The position numbers were made by a program, and so were the translations under genes. The notes under the pieces are model-generated. The model ran no database searches. It had not been told where the DNA came from and was given only the letters and a program-made list of their open reading frames with translations. Below, one piece after another: positions 1,268 to 14,901 of a DNA stretch of 34,063 bases. Position 1 is the stretch's first letter. Each line of letters opens with the position of its first letter. The stretch covers positions 1-34,063 of the forward strand of contig PUND01000092.1 of assembly GCA_003551645.1 (NCBI GenBank), written 5' to 3'. This stretch comes from Phycisphaerae bacterium. Lineage in GTDB: Bacteria > Planctomycetota > Phycisphaerae > SM23-33.

Positions 1268-2077
1268 TCAGCTTCGCTTTCGGCGGAGCATCAAAGCAAG
1301 CCCGCCGATGCCCAGCAGACCCATCGTCGCCGGTTCGGGGATTACCAGCATATCCCGCACAATCAGATCGCTGTTGGAGTCGCTGTCGCCGCCGAAGACT
1401 ATGCTCGACGGCCAGCCGTTATCCCATGCAGCCATCGTCTCCGTCGGGATTGTGACCGGGTCTGTGGTCTGGTCGGCCGTGAACGCGGCGTATGTGCCGT
1501 CGCCGGCATAGTTGAAGTCCACACCGTATTGGACGGTCCTGTCCACAGGGTCATAGAGCATACGGACCGCAGTGACAGTCACCTGCGTCTGGTCGGCGTC
1601 CCCGATGTAAGACCACTCCTCCAGTTCTTCCCTGCCTTCGGGGTACGGCTGTATCACTTCCAGGCCACTCGGCTCCTGGTTTAGAACCAGGTACACCCCG
1701 TGGGCTTCGCCGCGGTCCGGCACACCATATTCGCCGATTTCACCGCTGCCGAGTCCCAGGAACAACTGGCTGTCATCGCCCCAGCTCGTTCCCAGTTGTG
1801 TCTCGACCGTAAGATAGACCTCCAGATACATCTGATGGTACTCGGTACCGTCGGTGCGGACGTAGTTGCGGGCATCGTCCCCATCGCCGGCGAACACGAT
1901 ACCGTCACCTGTGTAGTCAGGGGCCCTGTCGGAACTATCCGAGGCGAGACTGAATCCCGCCGGCAGCTCGTCGCCGGTGAACGACTCCTGTATTATCACC
2001 GCCGCTGAAGCCGGCGCCGCCAGCATCACCGCGGCGATTGCCGCCGCTGCCATCGCGAAGTGCTTTCCTCTGCACAT
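1268..2077 (-). CDS. PEP-CTERM sorting domain-containing exported protein (gene 2)
   Basis: A 269-residue protein. The start is ATG 2077 with AAGGAG 7 nt before it. Residues 1-26 form a signal peptide (MCRGKHFAMAAAAIAAVMLA then AAPASAA), cleaved near ASA|A. The middle is acidic and beta-rich, with a lamin- or lectin-like look (SFTGDELPAG near the start, a long stretch of paired strands), but I cannot name the family. The C-terminus has IPEPATMGLLGIGGLALML and the basic end RRKRS, a classic PEP-CTERM tail for exosortase-dependent sorting. Neighbours on both sides are the same class with unrelated bodies. Its promoter is at 2203-2231. The role is probably extracellular or cell-surface; substrate unknown. 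Confidence 0.9.
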   Translation of the reverse strand: MCRGKHFAMAAAAIAAVMLAAPASAAVIIQESFTGDELPAGFSLASDSSDRAPDYTGDGIVFAGDGDDARNYVRTDGTEYHQMYLEVYLTVETQLGTSWGDDSQLFLGLGSGEIGEYGVPDRGEAHGVYLVLNQEPSGLEVIQPYPEGREELEEWSYIGDADQTQVTVTAVRMLYDPVDRTVQYGVDFNYAGDGTYAAFTADQTTDPVTIPTETMAAWDNGWPSSIVFGGDSDSNSDLIVRDMLVIPEPATMGLLGIGGLALMLRRKRS

Positions 2078-2361: not shown

Positions 2362-3006
2362 TCAGCTTCGCTTTCGGCGGAGCATCAAAGCAAGCCCGCC
2401 GATGCCCAGCAGACCCATCGTTGCCGGTTCGGGAATGCCCGTTATTTCGCCGGTGCCTTTGGACCTGAAGAAGGATAGATACTCGTCGTCATCACTGCTC
2501 CACTCACGTACGTTCGTGGAAAAGGAGACCGAGATCGGTTCAGCAATCGTCAGATCAAACGGTAGTTGCTGACCAACAAGTTCCGCGGCCGAGCCGGCAA
2601 AGACGAACCGGACACTCTGCGTCAACGGGACGTACGCGACGGTTACCTCATCCAGAAGCAGAGACAGAAAGTCACCGCCTCCCAGGTTCAGATAGAGGGT
2701 GCCGTCAGTTGCGCTGGTAACTTGCCCGCCGCCCACGGGGATATCGTAAACATCCGGGATGTCGAGGTCCATCGAGACGCCGTAGGTGTCATCGTCGCGA
2801 ACTCCCACCTTCGTCTCGTCGTCGAAGAACGTAACGTTGGTCAGCGGATCGGGGCTATCCACACCCGTGATAGTGCTGCCATCGTAGGCCAGATCGACAC
2901 CGCCAAGCTCAATCTGGATCATCGCCGCCGATGCCGCCGCGGGCAGGCCCACCAGGACAAGCGATCCAACCGCCAACAATGCCAGCAATCTGTTTGTGTG
3001 TCTCAT
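2362..3006 (-). CDS. PEP-CTERM sorting domain-containing exported protein (gene 3)
   Basis: ATG 3006 is chosen over upstream in-frame codons because AAAAAGGAG lies just before it and a signal peptide begins there (MRHTNRLLALLAVGSLVLVG, cleaved near ASA|A). The mature protein is about 185 residues, acidic, with Gly-rich beta segments and DDE/DDD runs that could bind calcium (inference). It ends with IPEPATMGLLGIGGLALML and RRKRS, identical to gene 2. The body is unrelated to genes 1 and 2 and I do not recognise a family. Unlike the other two, it has a near-consensus promoter (3352-3379) and a leader of roughly 340 nt with several hairpins, so post-transcriptional control is possible. Confidence 0.88.
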   Translation of the reverse strand: MRHTNRLLALLAVGSLVLVGLPAAASAAMIQIELGGVDLAYDGSTITGVDSPDPLTNVTFFDDETKVGVRDDDTYGVSMDLDIPDVYDIPVGGGQVTSATDGTLYLNLGGGDFLSLLLDEVTVAYVPLTQSVRFVFAGSAAELVGQQLPFDLTIAEPISVSFSTNVREWSSDDDEYLSFFRSKGTGEITGIPEPATMGLLGIGGLALMLRRKRS

Positions 3007-3157
3007 GACATCTCTCCTTTTTCTGCGGTCCCACTGGAACCGGCATCTGACGCGGGGGGAATTCGGCACACACGGCCGAGTTGCGCCCTCGCAATTGTCT
3101 CACCTTTCTGAACTACGCGGGGCCGCGCGGACTACCGGCCGCACATACAGCGCCGCG

Positions 3158-3698: not shown

Positions 3699-5243
3699 TC
3701 ACGTCCGCCGGACCGCCTCTTCCGGCCCGTCGGCGTTCATGTCCCTTTGATCCTGCTCATCATAGAATTTCCGGGGAAACTCCCGAAGATCGGTATCATG
3801 GGGCACCACGTCGGAAGTTTCCATGTACCAGGTGAGCATCCGCTCCTTCAGCCGGGCGAGCGTCTCGGCGAGGGCGGGTTCGTCGATGCGGTTGTTCAGC
3901 TCGGCCGGGTCGTCACGCAGGTCGTAAAGCTCGTCGGTCTCGTAATGCCGCCGGACGTACTTGAAGTCCCGCGTGCGGCACATTGCGGCCTTGGTGTGTT
4001 CCGGCCCCTCGCTTCGCTGGAGGTTGACCCTCGGCCAGTACAGCCCCTCCGGGTCCTCGCTGGATGAGCTGCCGAGTTCCATGCAGTGGGTCTCACCATG
4101 GAGCCGGCCGCCCTCGCAGAATACCGCGTCGCGATGCTGGTCGGTATCGCCTGCCAGCACCGACCGCAGCGACCGGCCGAAGTGCGTCCAGTCGGGCTTT
4201 ATGTCCGCGAAGTCCATAACCGTGGCGGTCATGTCTATAAGCTCGACCATGGCATCGCGGATGCCCGGCCGGGCGCCGGCATCGGCCGGGGGCTTGACGA
4301 TAAGCGGCACGCGGGACAGGCAGTCCTCAAAGGTGTTCTGCGTCTTTTCGACCAGCGAGTAATCGCCGGTGAAGTCGCCGTGGTCGGCGAAGAAGAAGGC
4401 AGCCGTATCGTCGTATATCCCCGCCTCCCGCAGCGCTTCAAGCAGGATGCGCCACTGGTCGTCCACCCGCGCGCACATGCCGTAATAGGTCGCCCGCAGT
4501 TCCCGCCAGCGGTCCTCGGTCCAGCCCCGCATGCGCTGGCGGTCGCGGATGCCCCTCAGCAAGCTGGGCTTTTTGTCCCAGTCCGGTTCGGGCGTGCGCG
4601 GCGGCAGCTTTGAGCGGTCGATGGCGCTGTAGTACGGCTCTTCCACGCAGTACGGCGGGTGCGGGAAGCCGATGGGCACGTAGATGCACAGGGGCTTGTC
4701 CTTCGGCGCGTTGCGGATGAACTCGGCCGCGGCCAGCACGTGGCACCAGTCGCCGTCGAGGTAAACATCCTCGCCGTCGTCCTTTTCGAGCTTGCCTCGG
4801 TAGAAGCTGTAGTAGTTGTCGCCTTCGGGGTCGCCTCGCCAGGACCTGTCGCCGTGGCTGTCGCGCTTGCGGGGGTTGATGCGGGCCTTGACGTCGGCGA
4901 ATGCGGACCAGCCGTTCTGGCCCGGCACGAGGTCGTTCTTGCCCGCCCAGCAAACGAAATAGCCGCTGTCCTTCAGCGCCTTCAGCAGCACCGGCTCGTG
5001 CGGCCGAAGCATGTGATACATAGTGCGGTGTCCGGCGGTATGCGGATACCAGCCGGTCATGAAGCTGCACCTGCTCGGTGTGCAGACGGTGTTCTGGCAG
5101 AAGGAGTTCCGGAAGGATACCGCGTCGGTCCGGACAGATTCGTCCATGTTGGGTGTAACGGCGCCTTCGTTGCCTACGTGGCCGAGGACATCGCCGCGAT
5201 ACTGGTCCGGGTTGAAAAGCAATAGATGGGGTCGGTCACTCAT
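3699..5243 (-). CDS. sulfatase family protein (type I, formylglycine-dependent)
   Basis: About 514 residues from ATG 5243 (an in-frame GTG at 5261 adds six). It hydrolyses sulfate or phosphonate esters by a type I mechanism; the natural substrate is unknown. Residue numbers are from the GTG. The N-terminal metal-binding strand is LLLFNPDQYRGD (13-24). The nucleophile motif is C60-T-P-S-R64, where Cys would be converted to formylglycine. DHGD (293-296) with Lys306 completes the metal and sulfate site. The pattern DQ-R-D and DHGDFTGD is closest to choline-sulfatase or phosphonate monoester hydrolase-like sulfatases. No signal peptide is visible, so it is probably cytoplasmic. It diverges from an oxidoreductase and shares its -35, suggesting a linked catabolic function. 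No strong Shine-Dalgarno decides the start. Confidence 0.9.
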   Translation of the reverse strand: MSDRPHLLLFNPDQYRGDVLGHVGNEGAVTPNMDESVRTDAVSFRNSFCQNTVCTPSRCSFMTGWYPHTAGHRTMYHMLRPHEPVLLKALKDSGYFVCWAGKNDLVPGQNGWSAFADVKARINPRKRDSHGDRSWRGDPEGDNYYSFYRGKLEKDDGEDVYLDGDWCHVLAAAEFIRNAPKDKPLCIYVPIGFPHPPYCVEEPYYSAIDRSKLPPRTPEPDWDKKPSLLRGIRDRQRMRGWTEDRWRELRATYYGMCARVDDQWRILLEALREAGIYDDTAAFFFADHGDFTGDYSLVEKTQNTFEDCLSRVPLIVKPPADAGARPGIRDAMVELIDMTATVMDFADIKPDWTHFGRSLRSVLAGDTDQHRDAVFCEGGRLHGETHCMELGSSSSEDPEGLYWPRVNLQRSEGPEHTKAAMCRTRDFKYVRRHYETDELYDLRDDPAELNNRIDEPALAETLARLKERMLTWYMETSDVVPHDTDLREFPRKFYDEQDQRDMNADGPEEAVRRT

Positions 5244-5306
5244 GGTCGGGTCTTTGAACACTCCGGCATGCGGGATTGTTTGCCAAAAGGTACGGTTACG
5301 CCGCCG

Positions 5307-5335
5307 AATATAGCCAGGTAATTCGATGGTTGCAA
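5307..5335 (-). promoter_or_regulatory. sulfatase promoter sharing its -35 with the divergent promoter
   Basis: Minus strand TTGCAA (5330-5335), 17-bp spacer, TATATT (5307-5312). TTGCAA is its own reverse complement, so the same six base pairs also serve the rightward promoter. The predicted start is near 5300, leaving about 57 nt before ATG 5243. Confidence 0.6.
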
Positions 5336-5358
5336 CGCGACGGCCGCCGCACTAGACT
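5330..5358 (+). promoter_or_regulatory. oxidoreductase promoter sharing its -35 with the sulfatase promoter
   Basis: TTGCAA (5330-5335), 17-bp spacer, TAGACT (5353-5358). The predicted start is near 5365, about 20 nt before ATG 5385, with AAGGG in the short leader. Confidence 0.6.
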
Positions 5359-5384
5359 TGCCGCAAACAGGCAAGGGTTTTTAT

Positions 5385-6554
5385 ATGAAACCGATGAACA
5401 CCGTACGATTCGGGATTGTCGGGCTGGGCGCCATCGGCCGGGCGCATGCCGACAGGATATACTCAGCCGGCGAGGAGAGCATGCGGCTCGGCGCCGTCTG
5501 CTCCGATGACCCCGCCGACGCCAAGCGGGCGGCCGAGGAGTTCGATGTGCCCCACTTCTCCCGCGTCGAGAAGATGTACGACTCCGGCCTCATCGACGCG
5601 GTGATAGTCGCAACACCGCACTACTGGCACCCGATTCATACCATAGCCGCCGCCCGCCGCGGGTTGCACGTCTTATGCGAGAAGCCGCTGGCGGCGACGA
5701 TAGGCCCGGCAAGGACGATGGTGGAGCAATGCCGCCGGGCCGGCGTGGCCTTCGGCGCGATGCTCCAGCACCGCACACGCGCGGTCATGAGCACCATGAA
5801 GCGAATAGTCGCAGACGACGAGCTTGGCCGGCTTTTCCGCGTATCGCTGACATGCTCCGACTGGTTCCGAACGCGTGCCTATTACCAGAGCCAGCCGTGG
5901 CGGGGAACCTGGGACGGCGAGGGCGGCGGCGTGATGCTGAACCAGGCGCCGCACCACCTTGACCTGCTGACCTGGATCGCCGGTCTGCCGAAGCAGGTGT
6001 TCGCCTACGCGCCCACCCGCCTGCATGATATAGAGGTGGAGGACACGGCCGCGGCCGTGCTGGACTACGGCGACGGCATGTTGGGCAGCATATACGCCTC
6101 GACCGCCGAGACACCCGGCTACGAGGAGCTTGTCGTCGTCGGCGACGGTGGTACGCTGATAGCCGAAGGCGAACGACTCGTCCGTGGCAAGGCCGCCAGG
6201 CCGGCCTCTATGCACGCCAAGGAATGCGAAGGGTTCGAAGGCCCCTGCTGCACGTGGGACAACGTGGAGCTGGACGGCGGGGGCGGCGAACACGTTGAGG
6301 TCATCCGCCGATTCGCCCTGGCGATACTTCGCGGTGAGCCGATGGTCGCCACCGGCGAGGATGCGCTCGCGGAGCTGGAGCTGTCCAACGCCGTGTATCT
6401 TTCGGCATTCCGGAACCGCCCGGTGGACCTGCCGATAAGCGCGGCCGCGGTGGACCGCCTGATGGCCGAGCTGGAGCGAAAGCACTCAGACGGCAGCGGC
6501 GGCGGACTGCGCAAAAAAACCCGACGCGCACTTAACCGACTGCTAAAGCAATAG
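5385..6554 (+). CDS. Gfo/Idh/MocA family oxidoreductase
   Basis: 389 residues from ATG 5385, chosen because AAGGG sits 7 nt upstream; the TTG at 5358 overlaps the predicted -10. The N-terminal Rossmann fold has the dinucleotide loop GLGAIG (13-18). The E-K-P motif (99-101) marks the family's NAD(P)-sugar active site. The region N186-Q-A-P-H-H-L-D193 fits the conserved catalytic His/Asp segment of the C-terminal alpha/beta domain. Such enzymes oxidise or reduce sugars, inositols or their derivatives; the substrate cannot be read from sequence. No signal peptide. The gene is followed by an enolase-superfamily gene and faces a sulfatase, so a pathway that removes sulfate and then oxidises and dehydrates a sugar acid is a reasonable inference. 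Confidence 0.92.
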   Translation: MKPMNTVRFGIVGLGAIGRAHADRIYSAGEESMRLGAVCSDDPADAKRAAEEFDVPHFSRVEKMYDSGLIDAVIVATPHYWHPIHTIAAARRGLHVLCEKPLAATIGPARTMVEQCRRAGVAFGAMLQHRTRAVMSTMKRIVADDELGRLFRVSLTCSDWFRTRAYYQSQPWRGTWDGEGGGVMLNQAPHHLDLLTWIAGLPKQVFAYAPTRLHDIEVEDTAAAVLDYGDGMLGSIYASTAETPGYEELVVVGDGGTLIAEGERLVRGKAARPASMHAKECEGFEGPCCTWDNVELDGGGGEHVEVIRRFALAILRGEPMVATGEDALAELELSNAVYLSAFRNRPVDLPISAAAVDRLMAELERKHSDGSGGGLRKKTRRALNRLLKQ

Positions 6555-6687
6555 CCGGAAGCCAGGCCCGCTCTGCGAAGCTCCGACGCTTCGGGACGAA
6601 GCAGGGAGCCGGCAGGGCCACATGCCGGAGCTAAAAGGAACTCGCCGGCTTGCCGGCAGGACCCATACAAGGAAACGAGGCGAAATT

Positions 6688-8097
6688 TTGACACTGGAGA
6701 CCGACATCCGACCGACGGCCGTGGAGCTTTACCTGCTTGGCGTCGAGACACGCGTGCCGCTGAAATTCGGCGCCGAGACACTGACCGAGGTAACCTGCGC
6801 GCGGGTGCGGATGACCGTGGCCGACGCGGCCGGAAACACCGCCGACGGGTGGGGTGAGACACCACTGAGCGTGCAATGGGTCTGGCCCAGCACGCTGGGC
6901 TACAGCGAACGTCACGATGCGCTGGTCCAGTTCTGCGGACAACTGGCGGAGGCCTGGGCCGCCTTCGACATCGCCGGGCACCCCGTTGAGATCGGTTATG
7001 ACTTCATCTCCGGGCCGCTGGCCGAGCTGCTGAAGGGCTTCAACGCCGGCCGTGCCGAGCAGGGCCGGGAGCCGATGCCGTACCTGGCGGCTCTGGTGTG
7101 CTGCTCGGCGTTCGACATCGCCCTGCACGACGCCTGGGGAAAGCTCCACGGGCTGGATGTGTACGAGACTTACAACGCCCGGTACATGTCCCGCGACCTG
7201 TCGGCCTTCCTTACACCGGCGCCGGATGCGGATGTGGACTTCGCCGGGCGGTTTCCGGACGAGTTCCTGGTCTTTCCACGGCCGAGTAAACTGCCGGCCT
7301 GGCACCTGGTCGGCGGCAGGGACCCGATCGGGGAATCCGAGCTTACCGGGGATGAACCCGACGACGGATACCCCGTATTGCTGGCCGACTGGATCGACCG
7401 GGACGGGCTGAAGTGCCTCAAGGTCAAGCTCCGAGGAAACGACGCGGAGTGGGACTACGACCGGCTTGTCCGGGTCGGGCGCATCGCCCGCGAGCACGGG
7501 GCGCTGTGGCTCTCGGCCGACTTCAACTGCACCGTCCGCGAGCCGGATTATGTAAACCAGGTGCTCGACCGGCTGATGGCCGAGCACCCGCACATCTGGC
7601 AGATGATCCTCTACGTCGAGCAGCCATTCCCCTACGACCTGGAAGCCAACCCCATAGACGTCCGCTCCGTATCGGCCCGCAAGCCGCTGTTTATGGACGA
7701 AAGCGCACACGACTGGCGCCTGGTCAAGCTCGGCCGGCGGCTCGGCTGGACCGGCGTGGCGCTGAAGACCTGCAAGACCCAGACCGGGGCGCTGCTTTCG
7801 CTTTGCTGGGCGAAGGCCCACGGCATGACGCTGATGGTCCAGGACCTGACCAACCCTATGCTGGCGCAGGTTCCGCACGTCCTGCTGGCCGCCCACGCCG
7901 GGACCATCATGGGCGTGGAGACAAACGGCATGCAGTTCTACCCGGACGCCTCGGCCGCCGAGGCGGAGGTCCATCCCGGCCTGTACACCCGACGCGACGG
8001 CAAAGTAGTGCTCGATACCGTCTCCGGCCCGGGGTTCGGATACCGGCTCGACGAAATCCGCCGCACGTTGCCGGAACCGATGGCGAGCTTTCCATAA
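6688..8097 (+). CDS. enolase superfamily protein (mandelate racemase/muconate lactonizing-like)
   Basis: 469 residues from TTG 6688, preferred because GGAAACGAGG precedes it and the family-like N-terminus begins here; ATG 6622 would add 22 atypical residues. These enzymes abstract a proton alpha to a carboxylate, commonly dehydrating or epimerising sugar acids. Numbering from TTG: K245-V-K247 is the catalytic K-x-K, D278/N280, E311 (YVEQPF) and D337/E338 (FMDES) are metal-ligand candidates, and K360 (ALK) is the Lys of the last barrel strands. It is longer than the usual 360-400 residues, with an insertion around 190-225. The 133-bp gap after the oxidoreductase holds GCCGGC-type inverted repeats but no clear promoter, so co-transcription is likely. 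Confidence 0.82.
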   Translation: MTLETDIRPTAVELYLLGVETRVPLKFGAETLTEVTCARVRMTVADAAGNTADGWGETPLSVQWVWPSTLGYSERHDALVQFCGQLAEAWAAFDIAGHPVEIGYDFISGPLAELLKGFNAGRAEQGREPMPYLAALVCCSAFDIALHDAWGKLHGLDVYETYNARYMSRDLSAFLTPAPDADVDFAGRFPDEFLVFPRPSKLPAWHLVGGRDPIGESELTGDEPDDGYPVLLADWIDRDGLKCLKVKLRGNDAEWDYDRLVRVGRIAREHGALWLSADFNCTVREPDYVNQVLDRLMAEHPHIWQMILYVEQPFPYDLEANPIDVRSVSARKPLFMDESAHDWRLVKLGRRLGWTGVALKTCKTQTGALLSLCWAKAHGMTLMVQDLTNPMLAQVPHVLLAAHAGTIMGVETNGMQFYPDASAAEAEVHPGLYTRRDGKVVLDTVSGPGFGYRLDEIRRTLPEPMASFP

Positions 8098-8196: not shown

Positions 8197-9579
8197 ATGG
8201 ACGCTCCGGAAAACGTAACGGCGAGGATACTCATCGTCGAGGATGAGCAGGCGCATGCCGAGGCCATCGAGGAAGGCCTCGGTCGGCTCGGACACGAGTG
8301 CGTGGTCGTCCACGACGGCCCCAGCGCGATAGAGAGAATCCGCTCCGAGCACTTCGACGTGATCGTCACCGACCTGGTGCTTGGCACCGAGGAGGACGGC
8401 ATGGCGGTGCTCTCGGCCGCCGGCGAGCACGCCCCCGGCAGCAAGGTGGTGCTGATAACCGCGCATTCGTCGGTCCAGACCTGCCGGACGGCCCTTCAGC
8501 AGGGCGCGTTCGACTACATAGAAAAGCCGCTGGATATCGAGGAGCTTCGCACGGTGGTCTCCCGCGCCGTCGAGCACACCGCCCAGCGACGGGTCATCCG
8601 CGAGCTTAAGCAGCGGCTGGACGAGAAGTTCGGGTTCGACAACATCATCGGCCGAAGCCGCGAGATGCTCCACGTGCTGAACGTGGTCCGCCGGGTGGCG
8701 CCGGCCGATCTGCCGGTGCTGCTTCTGGGTGAGTCCGGGACCGGCAAGGAGCTTGTCGCCAACGCCATCCACCAGAACTCACCGCGCGCGGACAAACGGT
8801 TCGTGGCCATAAACTGCGCCGGCCTGAGCGAGACGCTGCTGGAGGATGAGCTGTTCGGGCACGTCAAGGGCGCCTACACCGGGGCCACCGGCGACCGGGC
8901 CGGCCGCTTTGAACACGCCGACGGCGGCTCGCTTTTCCTGGATGAGATCGGCGATATGTCTCTGGCGATGCAGGCCAAGCTGCTCCGCGTGCTGGAGAAC
9001 GGCGAGATCGTCCGCGTCGGCTCAAACGACGCCGTCCGTGTGGATGTGAGGGTCATCTCCGCGACCAACTCCGAGCTGGCCGAAAAGGTCGAGAATAAGG
9101 AGTTCCGCGAGGATCTCTATTTCCGCATCAAGGGAGCGACCATCGAGTTGCCGCCCCTGCGCGAGCGGCGAGAAGACATCCCCCTGCTCATCGATCAGTT
9201 CATCCGTCGGGCCAACGAGACCCACGGCACCAACATCAAGGGCATATCACCGGAGGCCCGAAAGGTGCTGATGGCGTACCCCTGGCCCGGCAATGTCAGG
9301 CAGCTCCGCAACACCATCGAGAACATGGTGGTTCTCGCCGCCGGCGACGCATTGACGGTCGATGACCTGCCGCCGGAGATCCACCGCCGCCCCGAAGACG
9401 CCGCCGGCGGCCAACTGGGCGCCCTTGCGGGCATATCGCTGGAAGATGCCGAGAAGGAACTCATCCGCAACACGCTCAAGATGACTGAGGGCAACCGCGA
9501 GCAGGCCGCCAGGGTCCTGGGCATCGGCCAACGGACGCTATATCGCAAGATAAAGGAATACGACCTGCGCGACGTTTAG
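8197..9579 (+). CDS. sigma-54-dependent response regulator, NtrC family
   Basis: 460 residues in three domains. The receiver domain (8-125) has acidic E15/D16, phospho-acceptor D59 and Lys110. The AAA+ domain (about 150-375) has Walker A GESGTGKE (178-185), the sigma-54 contact loop GAYTGA (225-230, a Tyr variant of GAFTGA) and Walker B GGSLFLDE (243-250). A Fis-type helix-turn-helix (about 425-458) ends the protein. It would activate RNA polymerase with sigma-54 at -24/-12 promoters after phosphorylation. No partner histidine kinase is present, so it is an orphan here. I found no clear -24/-12 site in this window. The terminator at 9580-9601 follows at once. The convergent neighbour is the TpsA adhesin gene, which gives no evidence of regulation. 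Confidence 0.95.
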   Translation: MDAPENVTARILIVEDEQAHAEAIEEGLGRLGHECVVVHDGPSAIERIRSEHFDVIVTDLVLGTEEDGMAVLSAAGEHAPGSKVVLITAHSSVQTCRTALQQGAFDYIEKPLDIEELRTVVSRAVEHTAQRRVIRELKQRLDEKFGFDNIIGRSREMLHVLNVVRRVAPADLPVLLLGESGTGKELVANAIHQNSPRADKRFVAINCAGLSETLLEDELFGHVKGAYTGATGDRAGRFEHADGGSLFLDEIGDMSLAMQAKLLRVLENGEIVRVGSNDAVRVDVRVISATNSELAEKVENKEFREDLYFRIKGATIELPPLRERREDIPLLIDQFIRRANETHGTNIKGISPEARKVLMAYPWPGNVRQLRNTIENMVVLAAGDALTVDDLPPEIHRRPEDAAGGQLGALAGISLEDAEKELIRNTLKMTEGNREQAARVLGIGQRTLYRKIKEYDLRDV

Positions 9580-9633: not shown

Positions 9634-12600
9634 CTATCGGTTATCGGGTAGCCGGCCCTCGCTGTAGTCGTCGGTTATGTCGCCGCCGCCGGCCTCTTCC
9701 TCGTCGGAAAAGGCCGTGCCCAGCACATCTTCCATCCGCAGCCGGTGCGGCAGCGTCGGCGGATCTGCGGCCCGCAATTCCTCAAATATTCCCTCTTCGG
9801 TGAACTCGTAGGTGGACGCGTCGAGCACCCGTCCGGCCGCCAGCAGAACCGGCATCTGCGACAAATTGCCTATTGTCATGTTCGGCGTTCCCTCTTCCAC
9901 GCCCGTGATTCCGCCGGTCACGCTGATGACGATGGCTTCCGGGCCGTCGCCGCCGAAGGTTACCGGCCCGGTCAATGTCAGGTCATTGCCGACGATTATA
10001 TCCAGCCCGTCGTCCGGCCAGACCCAGCCGTCGGCCATCAGCACATCCCCCGGCTGACGCCGAAGGAAGGTAATGTCGGTTGGTGCGGTTATATCGACGC
10101 TGCCGGTCGCGCTTACATCGCCCAGGACGACCGATTCCGCCTCCATCTCCAGCGAGCCGAGGATAGTGAACTTCTCGTGAAGCCCGGCCTGGAACTCATC
10201 GACGTCGAAGGCGATCTCGAACGCCGGATCGTCAACCACATTCCCCTGCTCGTCGCGCCGCGCGGCGACGATTGTAGCCACACTCGGCACCTCCGGTCGG
10301 CCGTCGGTGTTTATCAGAAGCTCCGACAGCGGCTCCGAGCCACCGACGTCGGCCGCGAAGCTGACCACCGGCAGGTCCGGGCCTGCGTAATCGGTGTCCG
10401 CTTTCAGCGTCAGCGACACCGGCCCGGACTCGCTGTCCACGGTGTTGTTGAAAAAGATTCCGTCCGCGCCGGCATCGGTGATGGCGACATCCTCGGCCAG
10501 TATGACCGGGTCGTTGAACACGGCGGCCCCCGGTGTCGGCCCGGCGCCTACGTCCATATCAGCGTGCAGCCGCGTGGTACCGGCCGCATCGGTCCAGATG
10601 CTCGCCAGACCGAGTACATCGTCGCGGAAGTCGGTTGTGCCGTCGTCGTAAACCCGAAGCGACCGGGCGATGGAATCCTCGCCTATCGGCTCCCAGGCGC
10701 CATCCTCGAACTCGACTGCCTCGGTGGAGACGACCTGTCCGTCGAAGTCGATGCCGGAACCCTCAACAACCGTGTCGGCGGCCAGTTTCAGCGTGCCGTG
10801 ATATGTCTGGGAACCAGCCGTGGTCACCTCTTGGCCCTGGAGATGAATATCCTCTCCTGCGGCGTCGATTTCCAGATCGCCCAGGGGCGCTTCCCGACCG
10901 ACGGCATGCATCAGCCGCACAGTATCATCCGCCGCTACGGTAAGGTCCGAGGTAAGCCCCTCACCGCTGTCCAGTGCTCCGTCAAAGACCACCTCGCCGT
11001 CCGCGGTCAGCACGGCGGACTGCTCCAGCACGATGGCCGGGTCCGTCCGGCCGAGCAGATAGTCCAGTTCGGACATCGTTCCCCAGAAGCAATAGCCCTG
11101 GGAGCCGGTGGTGGTTACGTCCGCCCCGTCGAAGGTAACCTTATCCGCGGCCACCTCCAGTGCTCCAAGCTCCAGTGGCGCCGACAACGTAATCTCCGGC
11201 GATGCCAGTATCGCTTCCAGCCCCGGCACGCTTAGATGCGTCGCCATGTCGGAATCGACCTCGAACGGCGAAAGCGCGCCGATACCCAGAGTCAGCCCGT
11301 CCATGCCGCCCGGGAACTGCCCGGCCGACGGCACCATATCCACACCAGGGGCCGGGCCCTGAAGGATGAAGACCGCGTCCGGACGCGTATCGCCGCCTTC
11401 GGCGCCGCGGAATGTCACGTTTTCGACCCCGATGACTCGACCTTCGCCCGGCTCGGCGTCATATCCCTGGTCTTCATACGCCATCCGCACACCGGCAGTC
11501 AGGAGCAACTCGTCAACGTCAAACTCCACCGAATCGCCGATGACCATATCGGCGTCCGCATCGCCCATGGACTCGCCCTGCCAGGTCTCTTCCATGCCGC
11601 CAAACAGGAACACCGAGGTCGCCTCGGGGACTGAAAAGGTAACGTCGTCGCCGATAGTCAGCCCGGCCGCCCCGATCGCATAAATGCGATCCTCATACAT
11701 CCCGAAGCCGAACCACGTATCCGTATCACCGGCCGGCTCGGTGGCCGTGAGGTCGGCTTCGATCTGGAGCGTGTTCTCGGCCTGCATGAAGATATCGCCG
11801 GCAGTCACCGGACCGTCTATGAGCACATCGTGGCCATCAACTTCGAACTCCCCGTCCGCATCTACCGTGCCCAGGATATCGACTTGATGGCCCCTGACAT
11901 CGACCACACCCGGGTCGCCTGAGACCTCGAAGGTTCCGTCCAGCACCACATTGCCGTGGTCAACTTCCTCCGGACGGTCGAACCGGGCGTCGCACTCAAG
12001 TACGCTTAGGCCCGTGACGGTGGCGTCGATGCCGATGTCCCCGCCGCCGGTCTGTATGCTCAGGACAGAGTCCAGATCGCTGCTTACCGAGCCGTCGATG
12101 GTAACCGTCCCGCCGCGCTGGCCATGTTGGCCGGTTATCGGATCAAACGTGGCGGTGAAGATAATGGCCTGCTCGCTTTCCAGCGCGACGTCGCCGGACA
12201 ATGTCACATCGCCGCCAGCATCCCCCACTCCCGTAAACACATAGCCGTGCAGCTCGATATCGTCGGCCGTCACCGAGGCGCCTCCTTCGAGCAGGTTCAT
12301 CGAGGGGAGCCGCACCAGACCCGCGGATGTGACGGCCAGCGACTCCAGCGGCTCCAATTGCCCGATAAGGTCCGCCGGGTCGGGTCTTAACGAGACCAGT
12401 CCGTCGCCGGCGTCGATGGTCAACGACCTTCCAAACTCGGCCGAGTCGGCGTCCAGGCCGGTCATCTCGTCGAAATCCACGTTACCGCTGTCGCCTGTGG
12501 CATGGTTGGTGTCAATGCTGATATCCCCGGCGATCGATACCGGTGTGAAGCCATCAAGCGACACGTCGCCGCCATCGGCCCCGGCGACGGTTGTCAGGTC

Positions 12601-14901
12601 GCCGCGAAGCGTCAAGCCGTCGGGGGCGCTAAACGTGATACCACCGTCGGCCGTATGGATCGCATCGACCGCTACGGTCTGCCACGAATCGGCGACCAAT
12701 CCGTGCAGCGGCTCCACTCCGCCGGCGACCCCGTCGATGATGATGTCGCCGTTGGTGGCCTCAAGCTGCAAAGTATGGGCGCCGTCAATGGTGTCGTGGA
12801 AGGTGATATTCACTCCGTCTATGCTCGTGTCTTCTTCCAGAACGACCGGAGTGTGGAAATCCACATCCCCGACCATTGCGTCGATGTCGCCGTAAAGCCG
12901 GATATTCCCACCGGCGCCGGCATCGACCCACGACGGCGTCAACGCGGGCAGGTGGACATCGCCGTCGAAGGATCGCAGTTTGAGTCCGTAGTCCCACGCG
13001 CCGTCGATACCGCCGGGCTGGTTCAGGTCGATGTCGTCGGCCACCGATATCCAGATGCGCCCGTGGCTGGGGGCGATTGACCCGTCCTCCGCAAGCGTAA
13101 ACCCGCTGCCGGCGGCAGAGCCATGGACGATAAAATCGCCGTAGCCGGTATCGATTTCGGAGTCCACGGTAACCATCCCGCCCGGATCACCGTCACGTCC
13201 GGTGATAAGCCGAAGTGTCAGCGAGTTTCCGCCGAACGAGTCGTAAATCCGACCGGTGATGTCGATGTCCTTGTGCGCCCAGAGAGCCAGCTCGCCTTCG
13301 CCGATGCCCTGGTAGTCCAGATCCGCCTCGAAGGAGATGTTTCCGTCCTCATCGCCGGCATCACCCGTCTTGACGGTAACGACGGCGTTGCCCATCAGAG
13401 CGGTCCTTATGTCCGCGACGTCGATAGTGGCGCCCTCGGCGGTCGATTCCATCAGCATATCGGGCGTGAACGCCTGCAGGTTGTCCCATTCCTGCTGGTC
13501 GTCCGGGTCGTCGAGGTCCAGCCCCAGCATCTCGGCGGTCAGGTCCAGTTGATCGGTGAGGTCGTAGCTTCCCGGCAAGGGCGTTTCCACGTCCTCGGTC
13601 GGGCCGTCGATTATCCGGACGTTGCTGGGGTCTATGAGCCACTGCCCTCCTCTTCCCGCGGCAGCCGATACGTCCGGCGAACCGGACAGGTCCATGTAAT
13701 CCGCCGAGGAGGTCTCCACAAAGCCGCCGTCACCGCCCTCGGCGCCACCGCGGGCGGAAATCTGTCCGTAGCTGTAAGTGGCCAGATCGGACCAGACGAC
13801 CACCTCGCCGCCGTCGCCTTCGGCAACCGCGTCGGCGTTGACGTTTGAGGAGGAGCTTACAAAGGTCCCCAAGGCGTTCCTTTCAGGCCCTGCGCCCTCG
13901 GCCGCGCCGCCTATGAGCACCCTGCCGCCGCCGCTGTGTCCGGAAACGTCGGTGTCCCCGGAATGTATCACCGTCTCGCCGAGCAGCTTCACTTCGCCGC
14001 CTGTGCCGCCGGCTTCGTGATCCGAAGCGTCGATATCGCCGGCTTGAACGACGGCGCCGTCGCCGGAGAACGTAACGTCGCCGCCGTCACGAGCCCGCAC
14101 CTCGCCAGTGTTGCGTATCGCCATCGAGTACACGTCACCGGCGGAGAAGACGACCTCGTCGCCGCGGACCGTGCCCTGGTTGTCCACGCCCACGCCGCTT
14201 TGTGAAGATTCACCCCTACTCCCGGACTCGGTCCTGCCGGTCGAGGCGTCGAGGTCGTCCACAAGCACTCGGACACGTGAATCGCGCTCGGACAGGTACA
14301 CGCGCGAGCCGGACGAGAGGGTCACTATACCACGATCCGAAACGAGCAATCCGGTATTAGCGACCTCCCGGCCCATCAGGTGAATGCCGTCCCTGGCGAG
14401 TATCGTGCCGTGGCTCTCGACAACGCCCTCGGTGGTGAAACGGTCGATGCCGTCAAGAAAGTCCTCGTCGGTGATATCGCCGGCGGCCGCATGAAGCCGG
14501 GCCACATCCACCACGCTGTCCGGCCCGAAAGTCACGCCGGCGGGATTGACGAAATAGACTATTCCATTGGCCGTCAGCGTTCCCATTATCTGCGACGGCT
14601 CCGCGGACGATATCCGGTTCAGAACCCGCGAGGTTTCACCGGGCTGGACAAACTGCACGCTCGAATCTTCAGGCACGTCGAATCGGTTGTACTGGATTAT
14701 CGTCCCATCGGAGCAGGTGATCTTCGTGTGCCCGTCCTCGTGCGAGAACTCCGCCGACCCTGACCTCACACGGTCCACCTGAATGTCTCCGGCGTGGGCC
14801 GCCGCCAGCGACACCAGCACCACAACCGCCGCCAGACGGAAAGCCCCTCCCGGCCGCAACCGCCTGAGCGAACTCCCGGAAAACCTGTCACTGGTAATCA
14901 T
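9634..14901 (-). CDS. TpsA-type exoprotein with filamentous haemagglutinin N-terminal domain
   Basis: 1755 residues from ATG 14901 (AAGAGG 7 nt upstream). Residues 1-37 are a signal peptide ending AHA|GD. Residues 40-190 match the two-partner secretion (TPS) domain: repeated short strands, SQIMGTLTANG, and NPAGVTFGP (119-127), equivalent to the NPNG signature of FhaB/HMW1. The rest is a long acidic, Gly/Asp/Thr-rich array of short strands, as expected for a right-handed beta-helix. No C-terminal anchor, PEP-CTERM tail or toxin domain is visible; the end is hydrophilic (GGGDITDDYSEGRL). The cognate transporter is encoded just upstream, so the pair forms one secretion system. Product: secreted or surface-held fibre, function unknown (adhesin is the usual role). 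Confidence 0.92.
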   Translation of the reverse strand: MITSDRFSGSSLRRLRPGGAFRLAAVVVLVSLAAAHAGDIQVDRVRSGSAEFSHEDGHTKITCSDGTIIQYNRFDVPEDSSVQFVQPGETSRVLNRISSAEPSQIMGTLTANGIVYFVNPAGVTFGPDSVVDVARLHAAAGDITDEDFLDGIDRFTTEGVVESHGTILARDGIHLMGREVANTGLLVSDRGIVTLSSGSRVYLSERDSRVRVLVDDLDASTGRTESGSRGESSQSGVGVDNQGTVRGDEVVFSAGDVYSMAIRNTGEVRARDGGDVTFSGDGAVVQAGDIDASDHEAGGTGGEVKLLGETVIHSGDTDVSGHSGGGRVLIGGAAEGAGPERNALGTFVSSSSNVNADAVAEGDGGEVVVWSDLATYSYGQISARGGAEGGDGGFVETSSADYMDLSGSPDVSAAAGRGGQWLIDPSNVRIIDGPTEDVETPLPGSYDLTDQLDLTAEMLGLDLDDPDDQQEWDNLQAFTPDMLMESTAEGATIDVADIRTALMGNAVVTVKTGDAGDEDGNISFEADLDYQGIGEGELALWAHKDIDITGRIYDSFGGNSLTLRLITGRDGDPGGMVTVDSEIDTGYGDFIVHGSAAGSGFTLAEDGSIAPSHGRIWISVADDIDLNQPGGIDGAWDYGLKLRSFDGDVHLPALTPSWVDAGAGGNIRLYGDIDAMVGDVDFHTPVVLEEDTSIDGVNITFHDTIDGAHTLQLEATNGDIIIDGVAGGVEPLHGLVADSWQTVAVDAIHTADGGITFSAPDGLTLRGDLTTVAGADGGDVSLDGFTPVSIAGDISIDTNHATGDSGNVDFDEMTGLDADSAEFGRSLTIDAGDGLVSLRPDPADLIGQLEPLESLAVTSAGLVRLPSMNLLEGGASVTADDIELHGYVFTGVGDAGGDVTLSGDVALESEQAIIFTATFDPITGQHGQRGGTVTIDGSVSSDLDSVLSIQTGGGDIGIDATVTGLSVLECDARFDRPEEVDHGNVVLDGTFEVSGDPGVVDVRGHQVDILGTVDADGEFEVDGHDVLIDGPVTAGDIFMQAENTLQIEADLTATEPAGDTDTWFGFGMYEDRIYAIGAAGLTIGDDVTFSVPEATSVFLFGGMEETWQGESMGDADADMVIGDSVEFDVDELLLTAGVRMAYEDQGYDAEPGEGRVIGVENVTFRGAEGGDTRPDAVFILQGPAPGVDMVPSAGQFPGGMDGLTLGIGALSPFEVDSDMATHLSVPGLEAILASPEITLSAPLELGALEVAADKVTFDGADVTTTGSQGYCFWGTMSELDYLLGRTDPAIVLEQSAVLTADGEVVFDGALDSGEGLTSDLTVAADDTVRLMHAVGREAPLGDLEIDAAGEDIHLQGQEVTTAGSQTYHGTLKLAADTVVEGSGIDFDGQVVSTEAVEFEDGAWEPIGEDSIARSLRVYDDGTTDFRDDVLGLASIWTDAAGTTRLHADMDVGAGPTPGAAVFNDPVILAEDVAITDAGADGIFFNNTVDSESGPVSLTLKADTDYAGPDLPVVSFAADVGGSEPLSELLINTDGRPEVPSVATIVAARRDEQGNVVDDPAFEIAFDVDEFQAGLHEKFTILGSLEMEAESVVLGDVSATGSVDITAPTDITFLRRQPGDVLMADGWVWPDDGLDIIVGNDLTLTGPVTFGGDGPEAIVISVTGGITGVEEGTPNMTIGNLSQMPVLLAAGRVLDASTYEFTEEGIFEELRAADPPTLPHRLRMEDVLGTAFSDEEEAGGGDITDDYSEGRLPDNR

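What the first reader, a model, noticed from the sequence alone, without database searches (positions are those of the whole stretch)
5307..5358. Two divergent promoters built on one palindromic -35 hexamer
TTGCAA (5330-5335) reads the same on both strands and sits exactly 17 bp from a TATATT -10 on the left and a TAGACT -10 on the right. Polymerase could not occupy both promoters at once, so the sulfatase and the oxidoreductase/enolase operon may compete or be switched by a single factor binding there.
Basis: partly seen in the sequence, partly recalled or inferred. Interest (0 to 1): 0.7.

Follow-up and report, generated by a model that had tools for sequence, protein, structure and literature searches.

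The report
Divergent promoters sharing one -35 box
Two genes facing away from each other appear to be started from a single symmetric RNA-polymerase docking site, and the same layout recurs on other gene pairs, notably at one conserved gene pair in related bacteria, so it looks like a real, little-described type of two-way promoter and not a coincidence.

Summary
It exceeds chance. The pattern ANNNTA-N17-TTGCAA-N17-TANNNT occurs four times in this 2.8-Mb genome (about 0.02 expected; 0 for the reversed pattern), each time between divergent genes. In 35 genomes of the family it occurs 17 times. Equally specific controls (hexamers offset +1 or +3, abutting, or spacers of 20) give 3, 0, 0 and 1. 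In 344 genomes of the class it occurs 130 times against 21 for the reversed control. The layout is conserved at orthologous pairs: trpF<->Gfo/Idh in 7 genomes of the family, where the trpF -10 lies 3-7 nt before the ATG (leaderless), and an S55-peptidase gene pair in other families. TTGACA, not TTGCAA, is the ordinary -35 here. TTGCAA is the only hexamer that gives TTG on both strands in one register. The sulfatase-oxidoreductase pairing itself was found in no other genome, so a dedicated sulfatase/enolase switch is not supported. Best reading: a bidirectional promoter with one shared, symmetric sigma-4 site, occupied in one orientation at a time; a -35-centred variant of known -10-centred bidirectional promoters. 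No transcript data exist.

The parts
5330..5335 (.). Shared palindromic -35 hexamer TTGCAA (8-bp palindrome GTTGCAAC, 5329-5336)
   Evidence: Sequence, inverted repeat I4; layout enriched in genome, family and class
5307..5312 (-). -10 of the leftward (sulfatase) promoter, TATATT, 17 bp from the -35; predicted start about 5300
   Evidence: start position inferred from the usual -10 to +1 distance
5353..5358 (+). -10 of the rightward (oxidoreductase) promoter, TAGACT, 17 bp from the -35; predicted start about 5365
   Evidence: TAGACT also serves the Gfo/Idh gene in L226 (G018), L227 (G019) and L235 (G001)
3699..5243 (-). Sulfatase gene (514 aa, C-T-P-S-R motif), ATG at 5243
5385..6554 (+). Gfo/Idh/MocA oxidoreductase gene (389 aa), ATG at 5385, AAGGG 7 nt upstream
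6622..8097 (+). Enolase-superfamily gene, 67 nt after the oxidoreductase; same gene order in G001 and G011

Best explanation
The site is a bidirectional sigma-70-type promoter built on one two-fold symmetric -35 hexamer. SHOWN: exact geometry; strong enrichment of precisely this register (shared hexamer, 17 bp each side) over other registers and spacings; presence at four divergent gene pairs of this genome; conservation at orthologous divergent pairs in other genera; leaderless placement of trpF starts right behind the -10. INFERRED: sigma region 4 binds TTGCAA in either orientation; the -10 on the chosen side is then melted, so each event transcribes either the sulfatase or the oxidoreductase/enolase operon, and the two orientations exclude each other at the binding step. 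The relative quality of the two -10/spacer halves sets the ratio. TTGCAA is used because it is the only hexamer that offers TTG on both strands in the same register; its cost is two mismatches to TTGACA in each direction, so both promoters should be weak to moderate. Coupling is therefore a property of the promoter itself and not of a dedicated sulfatase switch.
For: Own genome: 4 sites, 0 in the reversed control, about 0.017 expected, P about 4e-9, or 3e-5 with a very generous background. Family, 35 genomes: 17 sites; controls with the same number of fixed bases: offset +1 (TTGNCAA) 3, spacers 20/20 1, abutting -35s (CAATTG) 0, offset +3 0. Collapsing the trpF orthologues to one still leaves 11 against a control mean of 2.4, P about 4e-5. 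Class: 130 against 21. Free -10 positions of the own sites match TATAAT 12/24, against 18% expected, P about 4e-4. trpF/Gfo pairs found by protein homology, not by the pattern: 7 of 13 have the full layout, and in those trpF starts 3-7 nt after its -10. A second conserved pair (S55 peptidase / unknown) carries it in other families. TTGACA is the general -35 of this genome (8 at spacer 17 against about 0.7 at other spacings); TTGCAA alone is not enriched.
Against: No transcript data. Each half of the window site is imperfect (9/12 and 8/12). The window pair is found in no other genome, so this instance has no footprint of its own. Six of 13 trpF/Gfo intergenic regions lack the layout. Enrichment is by short patterns, and part of the class-wide count comes from orthologues and AT-rich genomes.
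Confidence: 0.7

Rival explanations
1. TTGCAA with its flanks is the operator of a dimeric regulator that acts on both genes, and the match to a -35 is secondary.
For: The hexamer is palindromic. Flanks are biased at the trpF locus (CTTGCAAT), and the spacer on one side is conserved at the S55-peptidase locus (GA.AAAA). Offset +1 (TTGNCAA), which would allow better -35s, is not enriched, so something may favour exactly TTGCAA.
Against: At most an 8-bp palindrome in the window, short for a dimer site. Flanks differ between the four own loci. The fixed 17 bp to a -10-like hexamer on both sides is the optimum for a -35 (PMC12825309). The gene pairs share no function.
Confidence: 0.15
2. Only one of the two window promoters is real (probably the leftward TATATT one); the other half of this instance is coincidence.
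For: The right half scores only 8/12 and the scanner does not list it. A TANNNT at a given place has a background near 1%.
Against: Four two-sided sites in the genome where about 0.02 are expected. The same TAGACT serves Gfo/Idh genes in three relatives. The oxidoreductase needs a promoter within 141 bp and has a short leader with AAGGG before its ATG.
Confidence: 0.12
3. Coincidence of two ordinary promoters in a crowded intergenic region, with no meaning in the exact sharing.
For: Divergent pairs with short gaps will sometimes have promoters whose -35s fall together, and TTGCAA is then the only fit (inference). Only four alternative layouts were counted.
Against: Neighbouring registers should then be as common, but offset +1, offset +3 and abutting layouts give 3, 0 and 0 against 17. 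The layout is conserved at orthologous loci.
Confidence: 0.05

Closest known systems
Bidirectional promoters with a shared, pseudo-symmetric -10 element (Warman, Grainger and colleagues; PMC12825309, PMC10268837)
   Same: One core promoter element serves polymerase in both orientations because of DNA symmetry; binding in one orientation excludes the other.
   Different: There the -10 is shared and starts lie 7-25 bp apart (mode 18). Here the -35 is shared, there are two separate -10s, and predicted starts are about 65 bp apart. The published definition counts separate divergent promoters as not bidirectional.
Classical overlapping divergent promoters (e.g. the conjugation switch of plasmid pLS20, PMC4207663; title and start of abstract only seen)
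   Same: Two divergent promoters occupy overlapping DNA.
   Different: Its title names a genetic switch with DNA looping; here no regulator is evident, and the layout recurs on unrelated gene pairs.

Membership tests
Sigma-70-type promoter pair | -35 and -10 hexamers near consensus with a 16-18 bp spacer on each strand | tested here: met
   9/12 and 8/12 matches, spacers 17. TTGACA-17-TANNNT is the general signal of this genome.
Sigma-70-type promoter pair | Transcripts start about 7 nt downstream of each -10 | not testable with these tools
   No RNA data. Indirect support: trpF ATGs lie 3-7 nt behind the -10 at the orthologous layout.
Bidirectional promoter in the published sense (shared -10) | Divergent starts 7-25 bp apart around a shared, symmetric -10 | tested here: not met
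   The two -10s are 40 bp apart and predicted starts about 65 bp apart (definition).
Bidirectional promoter in the published sense (shared -10) | Orientations exclude each other | not testable with these tools
   Follows from the shared hexamer and polymerase size; not measured.
Shared -35 divergent promoter (class proposed here) | One TTGCAA, 17 bp to a -10 on both sides, between divergent genes, enriched over other registers | tested here: met
Operator-controlled divergent switch | Linked regulator or long dyad operator, and conserved gene pair | tested here: not met
   Only an 8-bp palindrome at the site; the pair is found in none of the relatives searched. A sigma-54 response regulator gene lies 3 kb away with no shown link.

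The most novel reading that the evidence does not exclude
A whole bacterial class uses a distinct, evolutionarily maintained promoter type, the palindromic -35 (TTGCAA) divergent promoter, in which one sigma-4 site is used in both orientations; exact sharing is selected over better-scoring staggered layouts because it ties the two genes' expression together by exclusion at binding.
Probability: 0.35. Interest if true: 0.75.

Novelty: new variant of a known kind. Interest (0 to 1): 0.55.

Why it matters
Bidirectional bacterial promoters have been described through symmetry of the -10. Here is comparative evidence for a second way, symmetry of the -35, with register-specific enrichment and conservation at orthologous gene pairs. 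If true, it predicts from sequence alone which divergent genes are tied by mutual exclusion, and it supplies natural test cases (trpF/Gfo, S55 peptidase pair) for whether polymerase competition is kept by selection.

Tried and rejected
Search for the sulfatase-Gfo/Idh pair in relatives: found in none. Idea that TTGCAA is simply the lineage's normal -35: rejected, TTGACA is. Idea that the window oxidoreductase is a recent duplicate of the trpF-linked copy (G000:C36): the tree does not support it; the window protein sits on a long branch at an unresolved place. The terminator-like hairpin at 5357-5375 begins upstream of the predicted start, so it would not be transcribed whole. Literature searches for divergent promoters sharing one -35 found no prior description in the held library; subscription papers are mostly not held, and Warman et al. 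2021 was not readable.

Full report
CHECK OF THE OBSERVATION. The sequence reads AATATA GCCAGGTAATTCGATGG TTGCAA CGCGACGGCCGCCGCAC TAGACT at 5307-5358. Both spacers are 17. Read leftward the promoter is TTGCAA-17-TATATT (9/12); read rightward it is TTGCAA-17-TAGACT (8/12). The consensus scanner lists only the leftward one. The sulfatase ATG is at 5243 (minus), the Gfo/Idh oxidoreductase ATG at 5385 (plus), and an enolase-superfamily gene follows 67 nt after the oxidoreductase. Predicted starts are about 5300 and 5365, giving leaders of about 56 and 20 nt.

IS IT CHANCE? In the window's own genome (2.83 Mb, G000) the pattern ANNNTA-N17-TTGCAA-N17-TANNNT occurs four times: C149 (this site), C36, C4 and C73; its reversed control occurs 0 times. 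From the density of TTGCAA and of TANNNT next to it in a 0.5-Mb sample of the same genome, about 0.017 such sites are expected, P about 4e-9; with a far more generous background the P value is about 3e-5. All four lie between divergent genes: sulfatase / Gfo/Idh; trpF / Gfo/Idh; phosphoribosyltransferase / secreted protein; galE-like epimerase / secreted protein ('secreted' is my reading of the N-termini). At positions the pattern leaves free, the eight -10s match TATAAT in 12 of 24 cases against 18% expected.

IS EXACT SHARING SPECIAL? In 35 genomes of the family there are 17 sites (reversed control 1). Layouts with the same number of fixed bases give: -35s staggered by one (TTGNCAA) 3 (control 5); spacers of 20 instead of 17, 1 (control 3); abutting -35s (CAATTG) 0 (control 1); staggered by three 0 (control 2). 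Collapsing the orthologous trpF sites to one still leaves 11. In 344 genomes of the class I summed 130 sites against 21 for the reversed control, in 91 genomes (sums made by hand from the table). Sites occur in families of very different base composition.

CONSERVATION AT ORTHOLOGOUS LOCI. Starting from the oxidoreductase protein and not from the pattern, 13 loci have trpF divergent from a Gfo/Idh gene. Seven carry the full layout (own C36, G018, G010, G001, G019, G024, G031). Four keep a trpF -10 next to its ATG but lack TTGCAA and the partner -10 (G004, G007, G015, G025), and two have no such trpF -10 (G005, G006; G006 keeps a TTGCAA-17-TAAACT towards the oxidoreductase) (for G001 the script took a nearer ACACTA, and the match with ACTATA 3 nt from the ATG is). 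In the seven, trpF begins 3-7 nt behind its -10, the expected place for a leaderless message, which argues independently that the -10 is real. A tree of the oxidoreductases places these loci in one part of the family but leaves the window protein on a long, unresolved branch. A second orthologous pair, a SpoIVB/S55-peptidase-like gene facing an unidentified gene, carries the layout in other families of the class (seven loci checked by their proteins: L288, L289, L293-L295, L297, L298; about 16 more recognised only by similarity of the site).

WHAT TTGCAA IS. The ordinary -35 of this genome is TTGACA: TTGACA-TANNNT peaks at spacer 17 (8, against about 0.7 at other spacings), while TTGCAA alone shows no peak. 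Because a usable -35 begins TTG, the only hexamer that offers TTG on both strands in one register is TTGCAA; this follows from base pairing alone. So TTGCAA is best explained as the compromise that one -35 must adopt to serve both directions. Not explained is why the +1 stagger, which would permit TTGACA one way and TTGTCA the other, is not used more.

HOW IT PROBABLY WORKS. Holoenzyme binds the shared hexamer in either orientation; the -10 on that side is melted; while one polymerase sits there the other direction is closed. The first two steps are inferred from standard sigma-70 promoter structure, the last from geometry. Whether exclusion has consequences depends on strength: for E. coli bidirectional promoters, basal activity is too low for competition, which appears only when one direction is activated (PMC12825309). 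With 4/6 -35s both window promoters should be modest, so competition may be slight unless an activator acts.

Sharing of the hexamer and exclusivity stand. A dedicated sulfatase/enolase switch does not. Sulfatase orthologues exist in seven other genomes of the class and enolase orthologues in 43, never in this arrangement where the flanks could be read, and the layout serves unrelated, often housekeeping pairs.

COMPARISON. The nearest known kind is the bidirectional promoter with a symmetric -10 and starts 7-25 bp apart (PMC12825309, PMC10268837). This is the same principle moved to the -35. It fails the published definition and is therefore filed as a variant, not a member. I found no prior description of a conserved shared -35 in the searchable literature, but that library is incomplete.

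LIMITS. No RNA data; the genome is a fragmented assembly of unnamed lineage (gene content such as PEP-CTERM proteins and many sulfatases suggests Planctomycetota, my inference, untested); enrichment rests on short patterns and a limited set of control registers.

Noticed in passing
L289, L288, L298, L294, L295, L297, L293 (site near position 1501 in most): A divergent pair (SpoIVB/S55-peptidase-like gene and an unidentified gene beginning MKAEHRH) carries a shared TTGCAA with a partly conserved 17-bp spacer (GA.AAAA) in other families of the class.
   Followed up: partly
L164:6309-6368; L226, L232, L237, L238: trpF appears to be leaderless: its ATG lies 6-7 nt behind the -10 in several genera; an exonuclease-like and an aldolase-like gene in G003 (L228, L239) show the same 6 nt.
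   Followed up: partly
window 5357-5375: CTTGCC-7-GGCAAG dyad overlaps the -10 and predicted start of the oxidoreductase promoter; could be an operator, flagged as terminator-like by the scanner.
   Followed up: partly
window 5257-5280: 24-bp imperfect palindrome AACACTCCGGCATGCGGGATTGTT in the sulfatase leader.
   Followed up: no
window 8197-9579: Sigma-54-dependent response regulator gene directly downstream of the enolase gene, same strand.
   Followed up: no
window 9634-14901: 1755-aa protein with a TPS (two-partner secretion) domain at its N-terminus.
   Followed up: no
window 1268-2077 and 2362-3069: Two PEP-CTERM sorting-signal proteins on the minus strand.
   Followed up: no
loci L034-L113 (other phyla): Among loci around Gfo/Idh genes of other phyla, TTGCAA-17-TANNNT is enriched (20 against about 6 at other spacings), unlike in the window's class; the cause is unknown.
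   Followed up: no
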